A program made the position numbers and the translations under genes. From the NCBI RefSeq assembly GCF_900155525.1, contig NZ_LT706952.1, forward strand, positions 568,406 through 632,405: a stretch of DNA of 64,000 bases, given 5' to 3'. Below, piece by piece: positions 22,182 through 33,159 of the stretch. Each line of letters starts with the position of its first letter. Position 1 is the first letter of the stretch. The notes beneath the pieces were generated by a model. It saw nothing but the letters and a program-made list of their open reading frames with translations, was not told where the DNA came from and did no database searches. The DNA is from Mailhella massiliensis. GTDB taxonomy: Bacteria > Desulfobacterota > Desulfovibrionia > Desulfovibrionales > Desulfovibrionaceae.

Positions 22182-22209
22182 CTCCTATTTTCTACCTTTA
22201 TGTAGAAAA
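22182..22209. promoter_or_regulatory. Distal copy of a 28-base palindromic element (UAS candidate)
   Basis: It contains TTTTCTAC (22188-22195), a six-base spacer CTTTAT and GTAGAAAA (22202-22209), a perfect 8-base inverted repeat. The 28 bases from 22182 are identical to 22519-22546. It is about 440 bases upstream of the sigma-54 promoter, a distance still workable for enhancer binding. Confidence 0.65.
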
Positions 22210-22518
22210 TGCCCATATTCGGCACCATGACGTACCGCAAGCCTTCTCTGCCCTAAAAAATCGCTGTTCCGCCCTCCGCAAGGGCATGAGAGCTGCCCCC
22301 ATTCCCCCGCGGCAGCATTCCCACCGCCTGTTCCGCTCTGCGCCGGTAACGGCCTCCCCCCAAAAAAGCCCTCTTTTCTCCCGTCCGGGCCTGCAACTTC
22401 GCCGGAGGAAAATCCACATTTTGGTAGATTTTTATTTTTTTTGCGGCAACATGCTGATTCTGCAGCATTAATGGCATGGCCCCGACTCGGATATAACATT
22501 TTTGTACATAAAATCTCG

Positions 22519-22546
22519 CTCCTATTTTCTACCTTTATGTAGAAAA
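22519..22546. promoter_or_regulatory. Proximal copy of the palindromic element (UAS candidate)
   Basis: Identical in all 28 bases to 22182-22209; its inverted repeat is TTTTCTAC (22525-22532) and GTAGAAAA (22539-22546). It is about 100 bases upstream of the -24/-12 promoter at 22630, the standard place for the activator site of a sigma-54 promoter. Confidence 0.7.
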
Positions 22547-22629
22547 CGATAACGCTTTTGTTCCGAGCCTTCCTTTTGGAAATTTTTTATTCCTATAATT
22601 TCCATATATTATAACAATCCACTCTTCTT

Positions 22630-22645
22630 TGGCACGCTTCTTGCT
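22630..22645 (+). promoter_or_regulatory. Sigma-54 (-24/-12) promoter of glnN
   Basis: TGGCACG-CTTC-TTGCT fits the consensus TGGCACG-N4-TTGCW exactly, with GG and GC ten bases apart. It is about 50 bases ahead of the glnN start, leaving a leader of roughly 40 bases with AAAGGAG. Confidence 0.88.
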
Positions 22646-24977: not shown

Positions 24978-26084
24978 ATGTGCAGAATAGGGTCGATTAA
25001 AAGCATCACCCCCGTGGGGCCGGGTACGGCTCTCACCCTCATGCTGCCCCAGCAGGAGGGACACGACAACTCCGGTTACGCCATGGTCATGCAGGACATG
25101 GCCGGGGTGTTCGGCGAATGGAAGGACAAGCCCCTTCTTTCCGCCGCATGCACGCGCGAAGGCATGCGCGCCGTGGACGACTACATGGCTGAGCATCACT
25201 TCACCCTGCTCTTCAGCTGGACGCCCAAGTACGACGCAAGGCCCGGCCTGAACATACGCCCCATGGAGCGCTACATCTTCCGCGTATACGACTACCCTTC
25301 CTATTACCGCTACAGCAGCGAAGAGGAAAAGGCCGCCCTTCTGCTCGATACGCGCCTCGCCCTGCGCTCCATGCTGGAAGAAAGAAACGACGGCTTCGTC
25401 TATTCCTTCTGGCCTGACGTGCTCACCCTCAAGGAAATAGGCGACCCGCGCGACATCGCCGCCTACTTCCGCCTCTGGGACGACTCCTGCCCCCTGCTCG
25501 CCCGCAACATCGTCACCCAGTGCCGCCAGAACACCAACTACGACATCGTGCGCTACGCCGCCCACCCCTTCTTCCTTCAGGGCTACACCGTATGCGTCAA
25601 CGGTGAAAACACCTTCTACACCAAGAACAAGGAATTTCAGAAATCCCTGCACCGGGGCTACACCGGCTTCGAATCCGATTCCCAGTGCCTGCTCTACAGC
25701 CTGCACTATGTGCTGCACGAGCTCAAATGGCCGCTGGAATACTTCAAGCACGTCATCACCCCCCTGCCCTTTGCGGAAATCGACAAAAGAGAAGATGCGG
25801 ACGTGCTGCGCCTCATCCGCCAGACTCTGGCCCACCTGGAAATCAACGGCCCCAACGCCGTCATCGGCATGCTTCCCGACAACCGCATGATCTGCTGCTG
25901 CGATTCCAAGAAGCTCCGCCCCGTGGTGGTGGGACGCACAAACGGCATGATCGCCGTTTCCTCCGAAGTATGCGGCCTGAACGCCGTCATGCCGGAACGC
26001 AACGCTTCCCTCGATCTTTACCCCGGCGAACGGGAAACCATCATCATCGACAACGACCTCAAGGTGCGCGTATGCAGGCAGTAA
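24978..26084 (+). CDS. Glutamate synthase, glutaminase (class II amidotransferase) subunit
   Basis: A 368-residue protein whose Cys2 would be the N-terminal nucleophile after Met removal (MCRIGSIKSI). It has the class II GATase pattern (QEGHDNSGYAMVMQD; later GPNAVIGMLPDNRM, AVSSEVCGLNAV). It is a separate gene for the amidotransferase domain of GltB, as in archaea and desulfovibrios. It frees ammonia from glutamine for the FMN subunit, whose start overlaps its end by 13 bases. Confidence 0.85.
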   Translation: MCRIGSIKSITPVGPGTALTLMLPQQEGHDNSGYAMVMQDMAGVFGEWKDKPLLSAACTREGMRAVDDYMAEHHFTLLFSWTPKYDARPGLNIRPMERYIFRVYDYPSYYRYSSEEEKAALLLDTRLALRSMLEERNDGFVYSFWPDVLTLKEIGDPRDIAAYFRLWDDSCPLLARNIVTQCRQNTNYDIVRYAAHPFFLQGYTVCVNGENTFYTKNKEFQKSLHRGYTGFESDSQCLLYSLHYVLHELKWPLEYFKHVITPLPFAEIDKREDADVLRLIRQTLAHLEINGPNAVIGMLPDNRMICCCDSKKLRPVVVGRTNGMIAVSSEVCGLNAVMPERNASLDLYPGERETIIIDNDLKVRVCRQ

Positions 26085-27703
26085 ACGCTCTCGACATCTG
26101 TACCGGCGATCTGCGCTGGGTCATCCGGCACGATCCTTCCCGCTGCACCATGTGCGGCAGCTGCGTGGCCCAGTGCTCGCAGAACGCCATTGAAGCGGTC
26201 ATGCTGCGCTGCGACATCACCGTTTCCGAAAAGCCCTGGCCCGAACCGGCCAGAAAGCACTTCACCCGGCCCGTCATCCGCCAGAAGGCCGACCTTGCCC
26301 ACCTGTGCGTGGGCTGCGGCTTCTGCGCCAAGGTATGCCCCAACGGGGCCATTCACCCCGAACGCAACGCCGACCAGCGCTTCCCGCTCATCGGCCGCGC
26401 GCAGGGTCCCATCCGCCGCGGCGGGCGCACCAACCTGAACACGCAGCGCACGCTCGATGCCGTGGTGGTGGGACGCATCAGCCAGATGACCGACCCCGCG
26501 CTCGACTCGGAACGCCATACCTTCGACATGCGCGCCCCCCTGGGCCGCGTGCTGCCCACAGGCTCCATGCCTCTGGAAGTGAAGGACGGAAAGCTCGTAA
26601 GAACCGACCGCACCCCGCCGGTGAACTGGATTTATCCTCTCATCTTCAGCGACATGTCCATCGGCGCGCTCTCCACCCGCGCCTGGGAGGCCATCGCCCT
26701 GGCCGCCTCCTACCTCAACGAGGAATGCGGGCTTCCCGTACGCATGAGCTCCGGCGAGGGCGGCATGCCCGTGAAGCTCATGGAGTCGGACAAGCTCAGG
26801 TACTTCATCATACAGATCGCCTCCGGTCATTTCGGCTGGGACCGCATCGTCAAGGCCCTTCCCCGCATGAAGGTCGACCCGGCGGGCGTGCTCATCAAGA
26901 TAGGCCAGGGCGCCAAGCCCGGCGACGGCGGCCTTCTGCCCGCCTCCAAGGTGGCCCCGCACATTCAGGCCATACGCGGCGTACCGAAGTCCACCCTGCA
27001 TTCCCCGCCCAACCATCAGGGCCTGTATTCCATCGAGGAATCGGTGCAGAAGATGCACCTTTCCCTCAACGCGGCCTTCGGCTTCCGCGTACCCGTGGCC
27101 ATCAAGTGCGCAGCCTCGGCCACCTCGGTTTCCGTGTACAACAATCTTCTGCGCGACCCGTACCGCATCTGCGGGGGCTTCTTCATCGACGGCATACAGG
27201 GCGGCACCGGCGCGGCCAACGAGGTTTCCCTCGACCATACCGGCCACCCCGTGGTTTCCAAGCTGCGCGACTGCTACCTCGCCGCCGTGGGGCAGGGCCT
27301 TCAGGGCCAGATTCCCCTGTGGGCGGGCGGCGGCGTGGGCCTTACCGGCAACGCCGCGGCCGACGCCTTCAAGATGATATGCCTCGGCGCCAACGGCGTG
27401 TTCATCGGCAAGATGCTCATTCAGCTTCTGGGCTGCGTGGGTAACGAAACGGGCCGCTGCAACAACTGTTCCACGGGCCTGTGCCCCAACGGCATCTGTT
27501 CGCAGGACCCGCGCCTCGTGGCGCGGCTCGATGTGGACAGAGGGGCGCAGGCCATTGTGGACTACGTTCTGGCCTTCGACAGCGAAATGCGAAAACTCAT
27601 GGCTCCCATAGGCAACAGCTCCCTGCCCGTGGGCCGCTCCGACGCTCTCGTAGCCACGGATCGCGCCGTGGCCGACAAGCTCGGCATAGCCTACGCCTGC
27701 TGA
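26072..27703 (+). CDS. Glutamate synthase, FMN-binding synthase subunit with ferredoxin domain
   Basis: A 543-residue archaeal-type GltB core. The N-terminus has two 4Fe-4S motifs, CTMCGSCVAQCSQNA and CVGCGFCAKVCPNGA, then the (beta-alpha)8 FMN domain: MSSGEGGMPVKL, KIGQGAKPGDGGLLP, SPPNHQGLYSIEE, FFIDGIQGGTGAAN and AGGGVGLTGNAAADAF. The 3Fe-4S cysteines are in GRCNNCSTGLCPNGIC. It reductively transfers ammonia to 2-oxoglutarate. The start at 26072 overlaps the preceding gene. Confidence 0.92.
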   Translation: MQAVNALDICTGDLRWVIRHDPSRCTMCGSCVAQCSQNAIEAVMLRCDITVSEKPWPEPARKHFTRPVIRQKADLAHLCVGCGFCAKVCPNGAIHPERNADQRFPLIGRAQGPIRRGGRTNLNTQRTLDAVVVGRISQMTDPALDSERHTFDMRAPLGRVLPTGSMPLEVKDGKLVRTDRTPPVNWIYPLIFSDMSIGALSTRAWEAIALAASYLNEECGLPVRMSSGEGGMPVKLMESDKLRYFIIQIASGHFGWDRIVKALPRMKVDPAGVLIKIGQGAKPGDGGLLPASKVAPHIQAIRGVPKSTLHSPPNHQGLYSIEESVQKMHLSLNAAFGFRVPVAIKCAASATSVSVYNNLLRDPYRICGGFFIDGIQGGTGAANEVSLDHTGHPVVSKLRDCYLAAVGQGLQGQIPLWAGGGVGLTGNAAADAFKMICLGANGVFIGKMLIQLLGCVGNETGRCNNCSTGLCPNGICSQDPRLVARLDVDRGAQAIVDYVLAFDSEMRKLMAPIGNSSLPVGRSDALVATDRAVADKLGIAYAC

Positions 27704-27768
27704 TTCTCCGGGAGCGCCCCGGCGCTCCCGGACAAAAGTCCGGAACCTCATCCCACAAAGGCAATTCC

Positions 27769-30196
27769 ATGTTTTGCATAGATACCCTCACTCAGCACGA
27801 ACGCATGTCCACGCAGAGCCTGCTGCTCGCCATATCCGAAGCAGTGGCCCGGGGCGAAACGGAATTTCATATCCATGCTTCCGGTCAGCACGACATCGGC
27901 GGCCCCCTGTGGAACGCAGAAGGCCGCACCCTGCGCTTTTTTGTGACCAACCCCGGCCAGAGGGTGGGCTGCATGGGCCTCGACCATACCGACATCATGG
28001 TGGAAGGCCCGGCCCCGGCCGATGTGGGCTGGCTCAACTCCGGCGCCCGCATCACCATCAAGGGCGACGCCGGCGACACTGCCGGGCACTGCGCCGCCTC
28101 GGGCATCATCTACATCGGCGGCCGGGCGGGCACGCGCTCCGGTTCGCTCATGAAGCACGACCCGCTCTACCCCGAACCGGAAATGTGGATTCTCAAGAGC
28201 ACGGGTTCCTTCCCCTGCGAATTCATGGGCGGCGGCAGAATGGTGGTATGCGGGCTCGACTCGGAACACCTTCCCTCCGTCCTCGGCGAAAGGGCCTGCG
28301 TGGGCATGGTGGGCGGCGTGGTCTACTTCCGGGGCAACCCCGGTTCCTTCGCCGAAGACGACGTGGCCGTGCATGACCTGAACGAGGAAGACATCGCCTT
28401 TCTTTCCGGCGGCATGGACGACTTTCTCCACGCCGTGGAACGCTCGGACGTGAAGGAACGCCTCACGAACTGGAGCGAATGGAAGAAGCTCCTCCCCCTG
28501 CAGAAGGGCGAGCATGCTCACCGCAGGCTTTCCATGACCGAGTACCGCAAAGAAAAGTGGGTGAAGGGCGGCATTTTCAGCGACGTGGTGGGCGACGATT
28601 TTCATGTGAACAGTCTGGTGATGCGCGGCGATTTCCGCCTGCGCGTCCCCTCGTGGGACAATGCGGCCACGGCCTCTCCCTGCGAATACGCCTGCCCCGC
28701 GCTCATTCCCACGCACAGGCGCTTCAATCTGCTGCGTGAAGGACGCACCGAAGAGGCCCTGCGCCTGGTGCTCGACTATTCCCCCTTCCCCGGTTCCGTA
28801 TGCGGCCATGTGTGCCCTAACCCCTGCATGGAGGCCTGCACGCGCGGCAAGCGCATCGACCTGCCCGTGCAGATAGGCGCTCTCGGCAGGGAATCCGCCG
28901 CCCTTCGCGCGGATGCCCCCGCCGCGGCAAGCGGAAAGAAGGTTGCCGTCATCGGTTCCGGCGCGGCCGGGCTTTCCGCGGCATGGCAGCTTGCCCGCAG
29001 GGGGCACAGCGTCACGGTGTACGAGGCCGACCGCGTCATCGGCGGCAAGATGGAGCAGGTCATTCCCAGAGAAAGGCTCGACCACGCCGTGCTGGAAGCG
29101 GAAATCGCCCGCATCGCGTCCCTGGGCGTAACCTTCGTGACCTCCTGCCCCGTGGACGGAAAAAAATTTGAAGCTCTGCGCCGGGAAAACGACGCCGTCA
29201 TCGTGGCCGTGGGCGGCACGAAGGCCCGCGTATTCCCCTGGGCCGGGAAGGAACGCGTCGTGCCCGGCATCGACTACCTGAAGGCCGTGAACAGGGGCGA
29301 ACACCCCGCCACGGGCAAAAACGTCATCGTCATCGGCTGCGGCAACGCGGGCATGGACGTGGCGGCCGGAGCCTATGCGGAAGGCGCCGGACATGTGACC
29401 TGCATCGACGTGCAGAAGCCCGCGGCCTTCGACGGGGAAATCGCCCATATCGAATCCCTCGGCGGCACGCTGGTATGGCCCTTCAGGACGCAGGCCGTCA
29501 CGGAAAAAGGTGTGGTGGACGACACGGGCCGCCTCATTGCCGGCGACATGGTCATCGTGGCCGTGGGCGAGGAACCGGATATCTCCTTCCTGCCCGAAGG
29601 CGCGCCCACCTTCCGGGAACACTGGCTCGTTCCCGGAGAGGACGGAAGCGTCCTGCCCGGCGTCTTCGCCGCGGGCGACGTACTGCGGCCCGGCCTGCTT
29701 GCCGCGGCCATAGGCTCCGGCCGTCTCTTATACACAACTAGCGGAGTGTCGGTGACTTGCTTTCCCTGGCCTGCCTGTCCGCCCCCGTCCTCGCCCCCGA
29801 ACGCCCGGCCAAAGGCCTCTCTCTTATTCACATCTAGATGTGTATAAGAACCAGTTGGAAGGCCGTGAGCCCAGAAAGGAAGCGGCAAGACCCGTGGCCT
29901 CCGCCAGACTCAGCCTGGAATACTTCAGCCGCGTACGCGTGGCCGACCTGCCCGCCCCCGCCGCCGACGATGCCCGCTGCATCAGCTGCGGCACCTGCCG
30001 CGACTGCCGCATGTGCCTGAATTCCTGCCCCGAAGGAGCCGTTTCCCGCACGGAGACGGACGGCGGCTTCGCCTATGTTTCCGACCCGGCGCGCTGCATA
30101 GGCTGCGGCATCTGCGCGGGCGTATGCCCCTGCGGCGTGTGGACCATGAAAAACAACGACCCCATGTACTTCCCCGCAGGGCGCGTGGTCGCATAA
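27769..30196 (+). pseudogene. GXGXG/GltD-like/ferredoxin fusion subunit of glutamate synthase, broken by a chimeric insert
   Basis: The gene joins three parts. Residues 1-240 are the GltB GXGXG beta-helix (SGARITIKGDAGDTAGHCA, GTRSGSLMKH). Residues 290-650 are the GltD-type NADPH:acceptor flavoprotein with CGHVCPNPCMEAC cysteines, FAD motif GSGAAGLSAAW and NADPH motif GCGNAGMDVAAGAYAEG. After ASGR-like end GLLAAAIGSGR it breaks at 29721 into mosaic ends. The true end resumes at 29855 in another frame (LEGREPRKEAARPV) with two 4Fe-4S motifs, CISCGTCRDCRMC and CIGCGICAGVCPCGVW. It passes electrons to the FMN subunit. Probably intact in the organism. Confidence 0.85.
29721..29854. other. Mosaic-end-flanked chimeric insert (technical)
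   Basis: CCGTCTCTTATACACAACT (29721-29739) is a mosaic end with two mismatches. After 77 bases of unrelated sequence, CTCTCTTATTCACATCT (29819-29835, part of a 19-base copy from 29817) and AGATGTGTATAAGAACCAG (29836-29854) form a back-to-back pair. The gene frame changes across it. No biological transposon has this layout without other genes. Confidence 0.88.
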
Positions 30197-31569: not shown

Positions 31570-33159
31570 ATGTCCGAGCACGATTTTTCCCTTTCTTCGC
31601 CGGAGCCCTTTCTCGAGGGTCTGTACCACGTCGTCGGCACTCTCGAACCGGGTCTGCCCTTCAGGGAGGCCCTTTCCCGCGTGCTTGCCGCCATTTCCCG
31701 AGATATGCCCTTCACCCGGGCGCACATCGTGGTGCAGCACCCGGAAAACGGCAGACTCCACCTTTCCATGGCCGAGGGAAAGACCTGCGTGCCTCACCTT
31801 ACCTATGCCCCGGGCAGGGGCATCACCGGGCAGGTCTTTTCCTCCGGCAAACCCATCATCGTGGAATGCATGAAGGACCACCCCGACTTTCAGAACCGCC
31901 TTTTTGAACGCAGTGACGAGGAGCTGCGTTCCCTGGCCTTTCTGTGCGTACCCGTCATCTCCCGCGAACGCCCGGCCGAAGGCGGCGGGGCCAGGCCCGT
32001 CGTCGTGGGCACGCTGAGCGCCGACACCCCCCGGGCAAAAGCCTCCGAACTTGCGCTGCGCTGCCGCTTTCTGGAAATCGTGGCCGCGCTGCTGGGGCAT
32101 CAGGTAGCCTGCCTGCAGGAAGACATGCTGCGCGAAAGCGGGCACTACACCCGGCAGGACGACGCCCCCCTGCCTTCCGAGCTTCGGAACATGCCCTCCA
32201 TCGTGGTGAGTTCCCAGAGCATGAATCATGTGCTGCACCATGTGGCGCAGGTGGCGCCGAGCGGCACCACCGTGCTGCTGCGCGGGGAATCGGGTTCGGG
32301 CAAGGAACTCATGGCCTCGGCCATCCATCAGTGCAGTTCCCGATCTGCGGGGCCCTTCGTCAAGCTCAACTGCGCGGCCCTGCCCGCCGACCTTGTGGAG
32401 GGCGAACTCTTCGGCTGGCAGAAGGGGGCCTTCACCGGGGCGCAGCAGGCGCGGCGCGGGGTGTTCGAACAGGCCTCTTCGGGCACGCTCTTTCTGGACG
32501 AAATAGGCGACCTTTCCCTGCCCGCGCAGGCCAAGGTGCTGCGCGCCATACAGGAAGGAGAAATCACCAGACTCGGCAGTGAAAAGGCCGTGAAGGTGGA
32601 CGTCCGCCTTATCTGCGCCACGCATCAGCCTCTGGAAAAACTGGTGGAACAGGGCCTTTTCCGCGAAGACCTCTATTACCGCATCAACGTCTTTCCCCTT
32701 TTTCTGCCGCCCCTGCGGGAACGCAAAGACGACATTCTGCCCCTTGCGGAACACTTTCTGCACCTTTTCGCCCGCAGGCACGGCCGGGAAGCGCAGAGCC
32801 TTTCCCCCCAGGCGGCGGACGCGCTCACCGCATGGCGCTGGCCGGGCAACGTGCGCGAACTGCAGAACGTCATGGAACGCGCGGTGCTTCTCTGCGAAGG
32901 CGATACCGTGCACCCCTGCCACCTGCCCCGGGAACTGCGCTCCGGGGAGGCGGAACTCATTGCCGGAAGTCCGCACGCCGCGCCCCTCGGCTTTCACGAG
33001 GAAGTGGGCCTGCTTGAGAAAACCCGGCTGGAAGAGGCCCTCGCCCGTTCCGGCGGCAACATTCATCAGGCCGCGCGCGACATCGACATCACCTACCGCA
33101 TCTTCTATTACAAAATGAAGAAATACGGCATCGACTACCGGCGCTTTCTTGCGCGCTGA
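31570..33159 (+). CDS. NifA-like sigma-54-dependent activator
   Basis: A 529-residue enhancer-binding protein. Residues about 15-180 form a GAF domain (LSMAEGKTCVPHLTYAPGRG, ITGQVFSSGKPIIVEC). The AAA+ domain has Walker A GESGSGKE (Lys245), the sigma-54 contact loop GAFTGA (286-291) and Walker B FLDEIGDL. The C-terminus is a Fis-type helix-turn-helix (ALARSGGNIHQAARDIDITY, RIFYYKMKKYGI). It is downstream of dapL and in the same direction as glnN, whose sigma-54 promoter and palindromes it is likely to serve. Its GAF ligand is unknown. Confidence 0.93.
   Translation: MSEHDFSLSSPEPFLEGLYHVVGTLEPGLPFREALSRVLAAISRDMPFTRAHIVVQHPENGRLHLSMAEGKTCVPHLTYAPGRGITGQVFSSGKPIIVECMKDHPDFQNRLFERSDEELRSLAFLCVPVISRERPAEGGGARPVVVGTLSADTPRAKASELALRCRFLEIVAALLGHQVACLQEDMLRESGHYTRQDDAPLPSELRNMPSIVVSSQSMNHVLHHVAQVAPSGTTVLLRGESGSGKELMASAIHQCSSRSAGPFVKLNCAALPADLVEGELFGWQKGAFTGAQQARRGVFEQASSGTLFLDEIGDLSLPAQAKVLRAIQEGEITRLGSEKAVKVDVRLICATHQPLEKLVEQGLFREDLYYRINVFPLFLPPLRERKDDILPLAEHFLHLFARRHGREAQSLSPQAADALTAWRWPGNVRELQNVMERAVLLCEGDTVHPCHLPRELRSGEAELIAGSPHAAPLGFHEEVGLLEKTRLEEALARSGGNIHQAARDIDITYRIFYYKMKKYGIDYRRFLAR

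What the first reader, a model, noticed from the sequence alone, without database searches (positions are those of the whole stretch)
22182..22645. Two identical 28-base palindromic elements with a consensus sigma-54 promoter before glnN
The exact 28-base repeat 337 bases apart, each centred on TTTTCTAC-N6-GTAGAAAA, ahead of TGGCACG-N4-TTGCT, predicts an enhancer pair. The palindrome is unlike the NtrC site (GCAC-type) or the NifA TGT-N10-ACA site, and a NifA-like activator sits at the end of the same cluster. This may be an undescribed nitrogen control site in this lineage.
Basis: partly seen in the sequence, partly recalled or inferred. Interest (0 to 1): 0.7.

Follow-up and report, generated by a model that had tools for sequence, protein, structure and literature searches.

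The report
Three-site enhancer switching on nitrogen assimilation
The two identical palindromes are the ends of a conserved three-site enhancer that very probably lets a NifA/AnfA-like activator switch on an ammonium-assimilation operon; the core resembles a known type of site, but its use on this operon, and the swapping of activator genes around it, look new.

Summary
In detail: an exact 28-base repeat at 22182-22209 and 22519-22546, each holding TTTTCTAC-N6-GTAGAAAA, before a consensus sigma-54 promoter (22630-22645) of a type III glutamine synthetase (GSIII) operon. Chance does not explain it. A third, degenerate copy lies between them (22410-22431). In the genus the array is conserved at fixed distances (-94, -209, usually -281). 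A matrix built from this genus finds the site in 13 of 14 regulator-to-amt/GSIII gaps from two other genera, and in 0 of 13 GSIII upstream regions of genomes without that regulator (an imperfect control). The core, TAC-N6-GTA, is the published AnfA-type site, so the palindrome is unlike NtrC or NifA sites but not of an unknown kind. The regulator best linked to it is not the one at the operon's end (clade A) but a paralogue (clade B, elsewhere in this genome) that sits upstream of amt-glnN in many relatives. Clade A remains a possible co-binder: two clade-A genomes without a detected clade B keep palindromes. Which of them binds is not settled. New variant of a known kind; moderate interest.

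The parts
22182..22209 (.). distal 28-base repeat; palindrome 22188-22209 TTTTCTACCTTTATGTAGAAAA, centre -431 from the TGGCAC start
22496..22505 (.). ACA-N4-TGT element (ACATTTTTGT), seen in 6 of 8 aligned promoters of the genus; possible extra, half-conserved site
   Evidence: alignment A1; (ACA-N4-TGT anywhere in 7 of 9 promoters, expected 0.32)
22519..22546 (.). proximal 28-base repeat; palindrome 22525-22546, centre -94
22630..22645 (+). sigma-54 promoter TGGCACGCTTCTTGCT (-24/-12)
   Evidence: conserved in alignment A1; an RpoN (PF04552) gene is present in the genome
22696..24810 (+). type III glutamine synthetase (glnN-like)
   Evidence: PF12437, PF18318, PF00120
24978..26084 (+). glutamate-synthase amidotransferase-like part (no Pfam or NCBIfam hit; role inferred from its place in the operon)
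26084..27703 (+). glutamate synthase FMN domain with 4Fe-4S part
   Evidence: PF01645, PF00037
27763..29847 (+). fused GXGXG domain and GltD-like FAD/NAD(P) oxidoreductase
   Evidence: PF01493, PF14691, PF07992
29840..30196 (+). ferredoxin-like protein
   Evidence: PF12838
30224..31465 (+). LL-diaminopimelate aminotransferase-like (TIGR03542, 561 bits, cut-off 364.7)
31570..33159 (+). GAF-AAA+-HTH_8 enhancer-binding protein, clade A (GAFTGA present): candidate binder

Best explanation
The palindromes are upstream activating sites for a one-component GAF-AAA+-Fis-type enhancer-binding protein of the NifA/AnfA/VnfA superfamily. Dimers bind TAC-N6-GTA dyads at three places (-94, -209 and -431 here), the DNA loops, and the AAA+ ring opens the RpoN promoter at 22630 to express the glnN-glutamate synthase-dapL operon, presumably under nitrogen limitation sensed by the GAF domain. 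The best-supported binder is the clade-B paralogue (G000:C27:517238-518776, unlinked here, next to amt-glnN in many relatives). The operon's own clade-A regulator may be a second user of the same sites. Shown: the sites, their conservation, geometry, promoter, gene linkage and co-occurrence. Inferred: binding, looping, activation, the nitrogen signal, and which paralogue acts. My split: B alone 0.40, A and B both 0.30, A alone 0.20, another factor 0.10.
For: Chance excluded. Geometry: middle site at -209 in 6 promoters and -206 in a seventh; proximal at about -94; distal at about -281 in G186, G187, G189, G191, G192, moved out to -431 in the window and -595 in G190. Dyad symmetry kept through change: G194 TTTTCCAC-N6-GTGGAAAA. 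37 of 57 sites with at most 1 mismatch in 288 genomes lie within 2 kb of amt, GSIII, aminotransferase or glutamate synthase genes. Independent test: a matrix from 16 sites of the genus is significant in 13 of 14 gaps between clade B and amt or GSIII in 14 genomes (13 of genus g18, 1 of g8), none of which had a site with at most 1 mismatch; 0 of 100 column-permuted matrices do as well. It is significant in 0 of 13 GSIII upstream regions of B-negative genomes (caveats in Tried and rejected). Palindrome near nitrogen genes in 27 of 103 B-positive and 2 of 185 B-negative genomes (Fisher p 1.5e-11); 11 of the 27 have B and no A, A2 or I match better than 1e-139 (my reading). Precedent for the site: TAC-N6-GTA for AnfA, two sites ahead of an RpoN promoter (PMC7294313, passages and Discussion read). 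Precedent for paralogues on one site: VnfA1/VnfA3 (PMC9542535, passages and section 2.5 read).
Against: No binding or expression data. The genomes are related, so the Fisher p overstates independence. B is unlinked to this operon here; no site with 3 or fewer mismatches lies near the B gene, only a weak matrix hit. Two clade-A genomes without a detected B keep palindromes (G189, G194); G066 has an exact one with neither A nor B detected; G182 keeps a degenerate array though neither A nor B was detected (69% complete). The HTH stretches of A and B agree at only 11 of 27 positions, which speaks against a shared site. Five B-positive genomes fetched (G174, G109, G111, G081, G117) show no site with 3 or fewer mismatches near the GSIII gene fetched. 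The nitrogen signal is inferred from the genes alone.
Confidence: 0.82

Rival explanations
1. The operon's own regulator (clade A, 31570-33159) is the sole cognate activator; clade B in other genera merely has a similar taste.
For: A closes the operon in the window and in 8 further genomes of the genus whose operon region was fetched. Its HTH stretch is 27 of 27 identical in window, G189 and G193; G190 differs at 2 positions and keeps the palindrome. Where it has diverged (G185, 18 of 27) the strict palindrome is gone and a GATAC-N6-GTATC dyad is found instead. G189 (96% complete) and G194 (88%) have A and palindromes but no detected B.
Against: 21 genomes have the palindrome at nitrogen genes with B and without A; one covariation event only; absence of B in draft genomes may be an assembly gap.
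Confidence: 0.2
2. The palindrome is the operator of an unrelated regulator (for example a repressor) that overlaps nitrogen promoters.
For: No experiment ties an enhancer-binding protein to it; G066 and G182 have sites with neither A nor B detected, both in drafts.
Against: Fixed spacing ahead of RpoN promoters, several copies up to -595, and co-occurrence with clade B.
Confidence: 0.1
3. It is simply the DVU1949 nitrogen site of Kazakov et al. 2015, already predicted.
For: DVU1949 is a one-component regulator with a predicted nitrogen regulon (PMC4641369 Table 1); the iorAB-linked clade I matches its described context (8 of 8 loci examined); GSIII promoters of clade-I genera carry TACA-N4-TGTA / TAC-N6-GTA dyads.
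Against: The matrix of this genus fits only 8 of 39 such promoters; ACA-N4-TGT occurs within 1200 bases upstream of iorA in only 2 of 8 loci; the I-clade protein of this genome (own3, by tree) has GAFLGA. I could not see the published motif figure, so this stays open.
Confidence: 0.25
4. Chance repeat or recent local duplication without function.
For: The two copies share the spacer and 6 flanking bases, so one may have been copied from the other.
Against: Conserved in relatives with different spacers.
Confidence: 0.01

Closest known systems
AnfA sites of Rhodobacter capsulatus anfH (PMC7294313)
   Same: TAC-N6-GTA dyads in two repeats upstream of an RpoN promoter; CAC-N6-GTA variants also noted there
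   Different: controls Fe-nitrogenase, not ammonium assimilation; no TTTTC/GAAAA flanks mentioned in what I read; two sites, not three
VnfA1/VnfA3 sites of Azotobacter vinelandii, GT(T/A)C-N6-GTAC (PMC9542535)
   Same: N6 spacing and GTA half-site; most promoters have two motifs; two paralogues occupy the same targets
   Different: flank G/C instead of TTTTC; vanadium nitrogenase and related genes
DVU1949 nitrogen regulon of Desulfovibrio vulgaris (PMC4641369)
   Same: one-component enhancer-binding protein predicted to control nitrogen genes in what I infer to be the same family of bacteria
   Different: clade I, linked to iorAB; sites at clade-I GSIII promoters share only the core; motif figure not seen
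NifA (TIGR01817) with TGT-N10-ACA
   Same: GAF-AAA-HTH architecture
   Different: below the NCBIfam cut-off; the site is different

Membership tests
AnfA/VnfA-type upstream activating site | TAC-N6-GTA dyad | tested here: met
   exact in both 28-base copies; CAC-N6-GTA in the middle copy
AnfA/VnfA-type upstream activating site | repeated upstream of an RpoN promoter | tested here: met
   three copies ahead of TGGCACG-N4-TTGCT
AnfA/VnfA-type upstream activating site | bound by AnfA or VnfA | not testable with these tools
   no binding data; no AnfA or VnfA model among the 25 families shown
AnfA/VnfA-type upstream activating site | controls nitrogenase genes | tested here: not met
   operon is GSIII, glutamate synthase parts, aminotransferase
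NifA (TIGR01817) | score above the curated cut-off | tested here: not met
   window protein 415, own clade B 482.9, cut-off 528.85
NifA (TIGR01817) | TGT-N10-ACA site | tested here: not met
   the palindrome has no such dyad; TGT-N10-ACA not enriched in 14 clade-B gaps (2 of 14, shuffle mean 1.16)
Sigma-54 enhancer-binding protein | AAA+ Sigma54_activat domain with GAFTGA, Fis-type HTH | tested here: met
   PF00158, PF02954; GAFTGA
DVU1949 orthologue (clade I) | groups with iorAB-linked proteins in the tree | tested here: not met
   window protein is clade A, beside A2 and I; own3 falls in I on a long branch. DVU1949 itself was not in the tree

The most novel reading that the evidence does not exclude
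One ancient three-site enhancer for ammonium assimilation stays fixed while the paralogous activator encoded beside it changes (clade B in some lineages, clade A in this one); where both exist, as here, two activators share the same sites, giving a two-input switch on glnN.
Probability: 0.3. Interest if true: 0.6.

Novelty: new variant of a known kind. Interest (0 to 1): 0.42.

Why it matters
It extends the TAC-N6-GTA class of activator sites, known from alternative nitrogenases, to ordinary ammonium assimilation in this family of bacteria, names two candidate regulators, and gives a clean case for testing how an enhancer outlives changes of its activator. It also gives a matrix that predicts amt-glnN control in relatives.

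Tried and rejected
Genome-wide regulon in this genome: rejected, core not enriched (50 against 71 control places). The 26 amt loci found in 13 genomes of the genus chosen for carry no match with 2 or fewer mismatches; but amt in two other genomes of the genus does (G188, G181). The one-mismatch place at C27:923140 (L003, L147) has none of the tested nitrogen genes beside it. Named relatives by a genome-contig scan: failed, because the patterns used were general AAA+ stretches; the scan is spent. Autoregulation of the iorAB-linked regulator by the clade-I dyad: not confirmed. First HTH comparison used a wrong residue range; repeated; only the GAFTGA lines and tree are used. One search stopped on N letters; repeated. 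My first reading that G182 had lost the array was wrong: degenerate copies are there. Papers: PMC4641369 abstract, passages, sections 5, 6, 11, 12, 13, 19 (figures and supplements not seen); PMC9542535 passages and section 10 (2.5); PMC7294313 passages and section 15. The other papers were seen only as listings. Searches (no paper) showed no description of this palindrome on glnN or amt; the library lacks most subscription journals.

Limits of the counts: the clade-B set of 103 genomes is my reading of the listed rows with 50% identity or more, partial rows included; one search did not list all rows. Clade A = 10 genomes with 65% identity or more. Promoter set B was chosen partly by palindrome hits, so its enrichment is circular; so were 10 of the 24 gaps (4 duplicates dropped from 28); hence the 14-gap test. 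Those 14 are from the 20 regions; the other 6 (G172, G102, G110, G121, G052, G080) had no clade-B gene directly before amt or GSIII in the stretch; of these G172 has two 2-mismatch sites before amt. The 13 B-negative regions come from 20, one genome (G070) giving two; left out were B-positive ones and G274 (45% match, ambiguous; one 3-mismatch site). That control is imperfect: 3 of the 13 are the other GSIII type (56-58% identity), two are shorter than 300 bases, and sites before an amt gene further upstream would be missed (seen for G070). Shuffles are first-order resamplings, not exact permutations. Of the 40 regions, 14 are genus g33; L064 (genus g18) was dropped for the one-per-genus test. 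Helical phasing was considered; the spacings (115, 72, 222; 119 and 110 in g18) are too few to claim it.

Full report
WHAT IS THERE. The repeat is real: 28 identical bases at 22182-22209 and 22519-22546, 337 apart, each with the palindrome TTTTCTACCTTTATGTAGAAAA, and TGGCACGCTTCTTGCT at 22630-22645. Within 64 kb nothing else matches with up to 3 mismatches; shuffles give 0.08 on average. In the whole genome the core TCTAC-N6-GTAGA is found exactly only here. A sigma-54 (RpoN) gene is present. Downstream lie a type III glutamine synthetase, split glutamate synthase parts, a ferredoxin, an LL-diaminopimelate aminotransferase-like protein and a GAF-AAA+-HTH_8 activator.

A THREE-SITE ARRAY. It sits at -209 in the window, G190, G189, G186, G191 and G192 and at -206 in G187; the proximal one at about -94. 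The distal one is at about -281 in G186, G187, G189, G191 and G192, but at -431 in the window and -595 in G190. G193 shows a proximal copy with two mismatches and a more degenerate middle one. G182 keeps three degenerate copies at about -276, -204 and -93. In G194 only the proximal part lies on the contig, and it shows a change on both arms that keeps the dyad. G185, whose regulator has diverged, has AGCGATACAAAAACGTATCGGT at -147 instead.

SPREAD. In 288 genomes of the family, 46 have the site with at most 1 mismatch, 57 sites in all, against 30 for the reversed control pattern (my sums from the table). 37 of the 57 are within 2 kb of amt, GSIII, aminotransferase or glutamate synthase genes, in 29 genomes; 20 are not. 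In genus g18 the order clade-B regulator, sites, amt, GSIII is common; in G097, G172 and G188 the clade-B gene lies instead at the far end of the cluster, beyond the aminotransferase.

WHICH REGULATOR. Trees separate clade A (window), A2, I (iorAB-linked in 8 of 8 loci examined, the context described for DVU1949 in PMC4641369) and B; some branches are weakly supported. The window's genome has A in the operon, B at C27:517238-518776 and an I-clade protein at C28:321211 with GAFLGA instead of GAFTGA. 27 of the 29 genomes with the site at nitrogen genes have B (not G066 and G189); 7 have A. A matrix trained only on the window's genus is significant in 13 of 14 gaps between B and amt or GSIII elsewhere (L325 fails), in genomes with no site of at most 1 mismatch, and 0 of 100 column-permuted matrices reach its mean score. 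It is significant in 0 of 13 B-negative GSIII upstream regions and 8 of 39 of clade-I and related genera; the limits of that control are told in Tried and rejected. Against B as sole binder: G189 and G194 keep sites without a detected B, B is unlinked here, and its own upstream has only a weak hit. Against A as sole binder: 21 genomes have sites and B but no A. Against both sharing a site: their HTH stretches agree at 11 of 27 positions. I therefore leave the binder open, with B favoured.

COMPARISON WITH WHAT IS KNOWN. TAC-N6-GTA is the AnfA consensus established by promoter mutations and binding in Rhodobacter capsulatus, with two sites ahead of the RpoN promoter (PMC7294313). [quoted passage not shown] there the authors note highly similar recognition helices, whereas the HTH stretches of A and B differ. 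GSIII promoters outside the two main genera show TACA-N4-TGTA, that is, the same core (13 of 40, expected 0.05; one per genus: ACA-N4-TGT 7 of 13, expected 0.84). PMC4641369 predicts a nitrogen regulon for DVU1949; that DVU1258 there is a type III synthetase is my recall. Its motif figure was not visible to me.

VERDICT. Observation confirmed; interpretation partly supported. An enhancer array of known site type, with new flanks, new target genes and an unsettled pair of candidate activators.

Noticed in passing
G000:C28:321211-322737 (L146): A third GAF-type activator of the genome falls in the DVU1949-like clade on a long branch and has GAFLGA instead of GAFTGA, so it may no longer work with sigma-54; no iorAB found beside it.
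   Followed up: partly
window 27763-29847: A GXGXG glutamate synthase domain is fused to a GltD-like oxidoreductase, next to separate amidotransferase-like and FMN/4Fe-4S parts.
   Followed up: no
L038 and L051 (G037, G078): In two genomes the palindrome stands upstream of a DctP-type solute-binding protein gene, a possible further target.
   Followed up: partly
L364 (G211), 1950-1971: A one-mismatch palindrome about 100 bases before a GAF-type activator gene 41% identical to clade B, a possible autoregulatory site.
   Followed up: no
G000:C28:1232785-1233273 (L177): A second type III glutamine synthetase gene, 50% identical, without a detected site upstream.
   Followed up: partly
G271:C68:7557-8996 and G272:C1:346838-348274: A clade-B-like regulator gene (45% identity) has one in-frame TGA in each of two genomes of genus g40: broken or recoded.
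   Followed up: no
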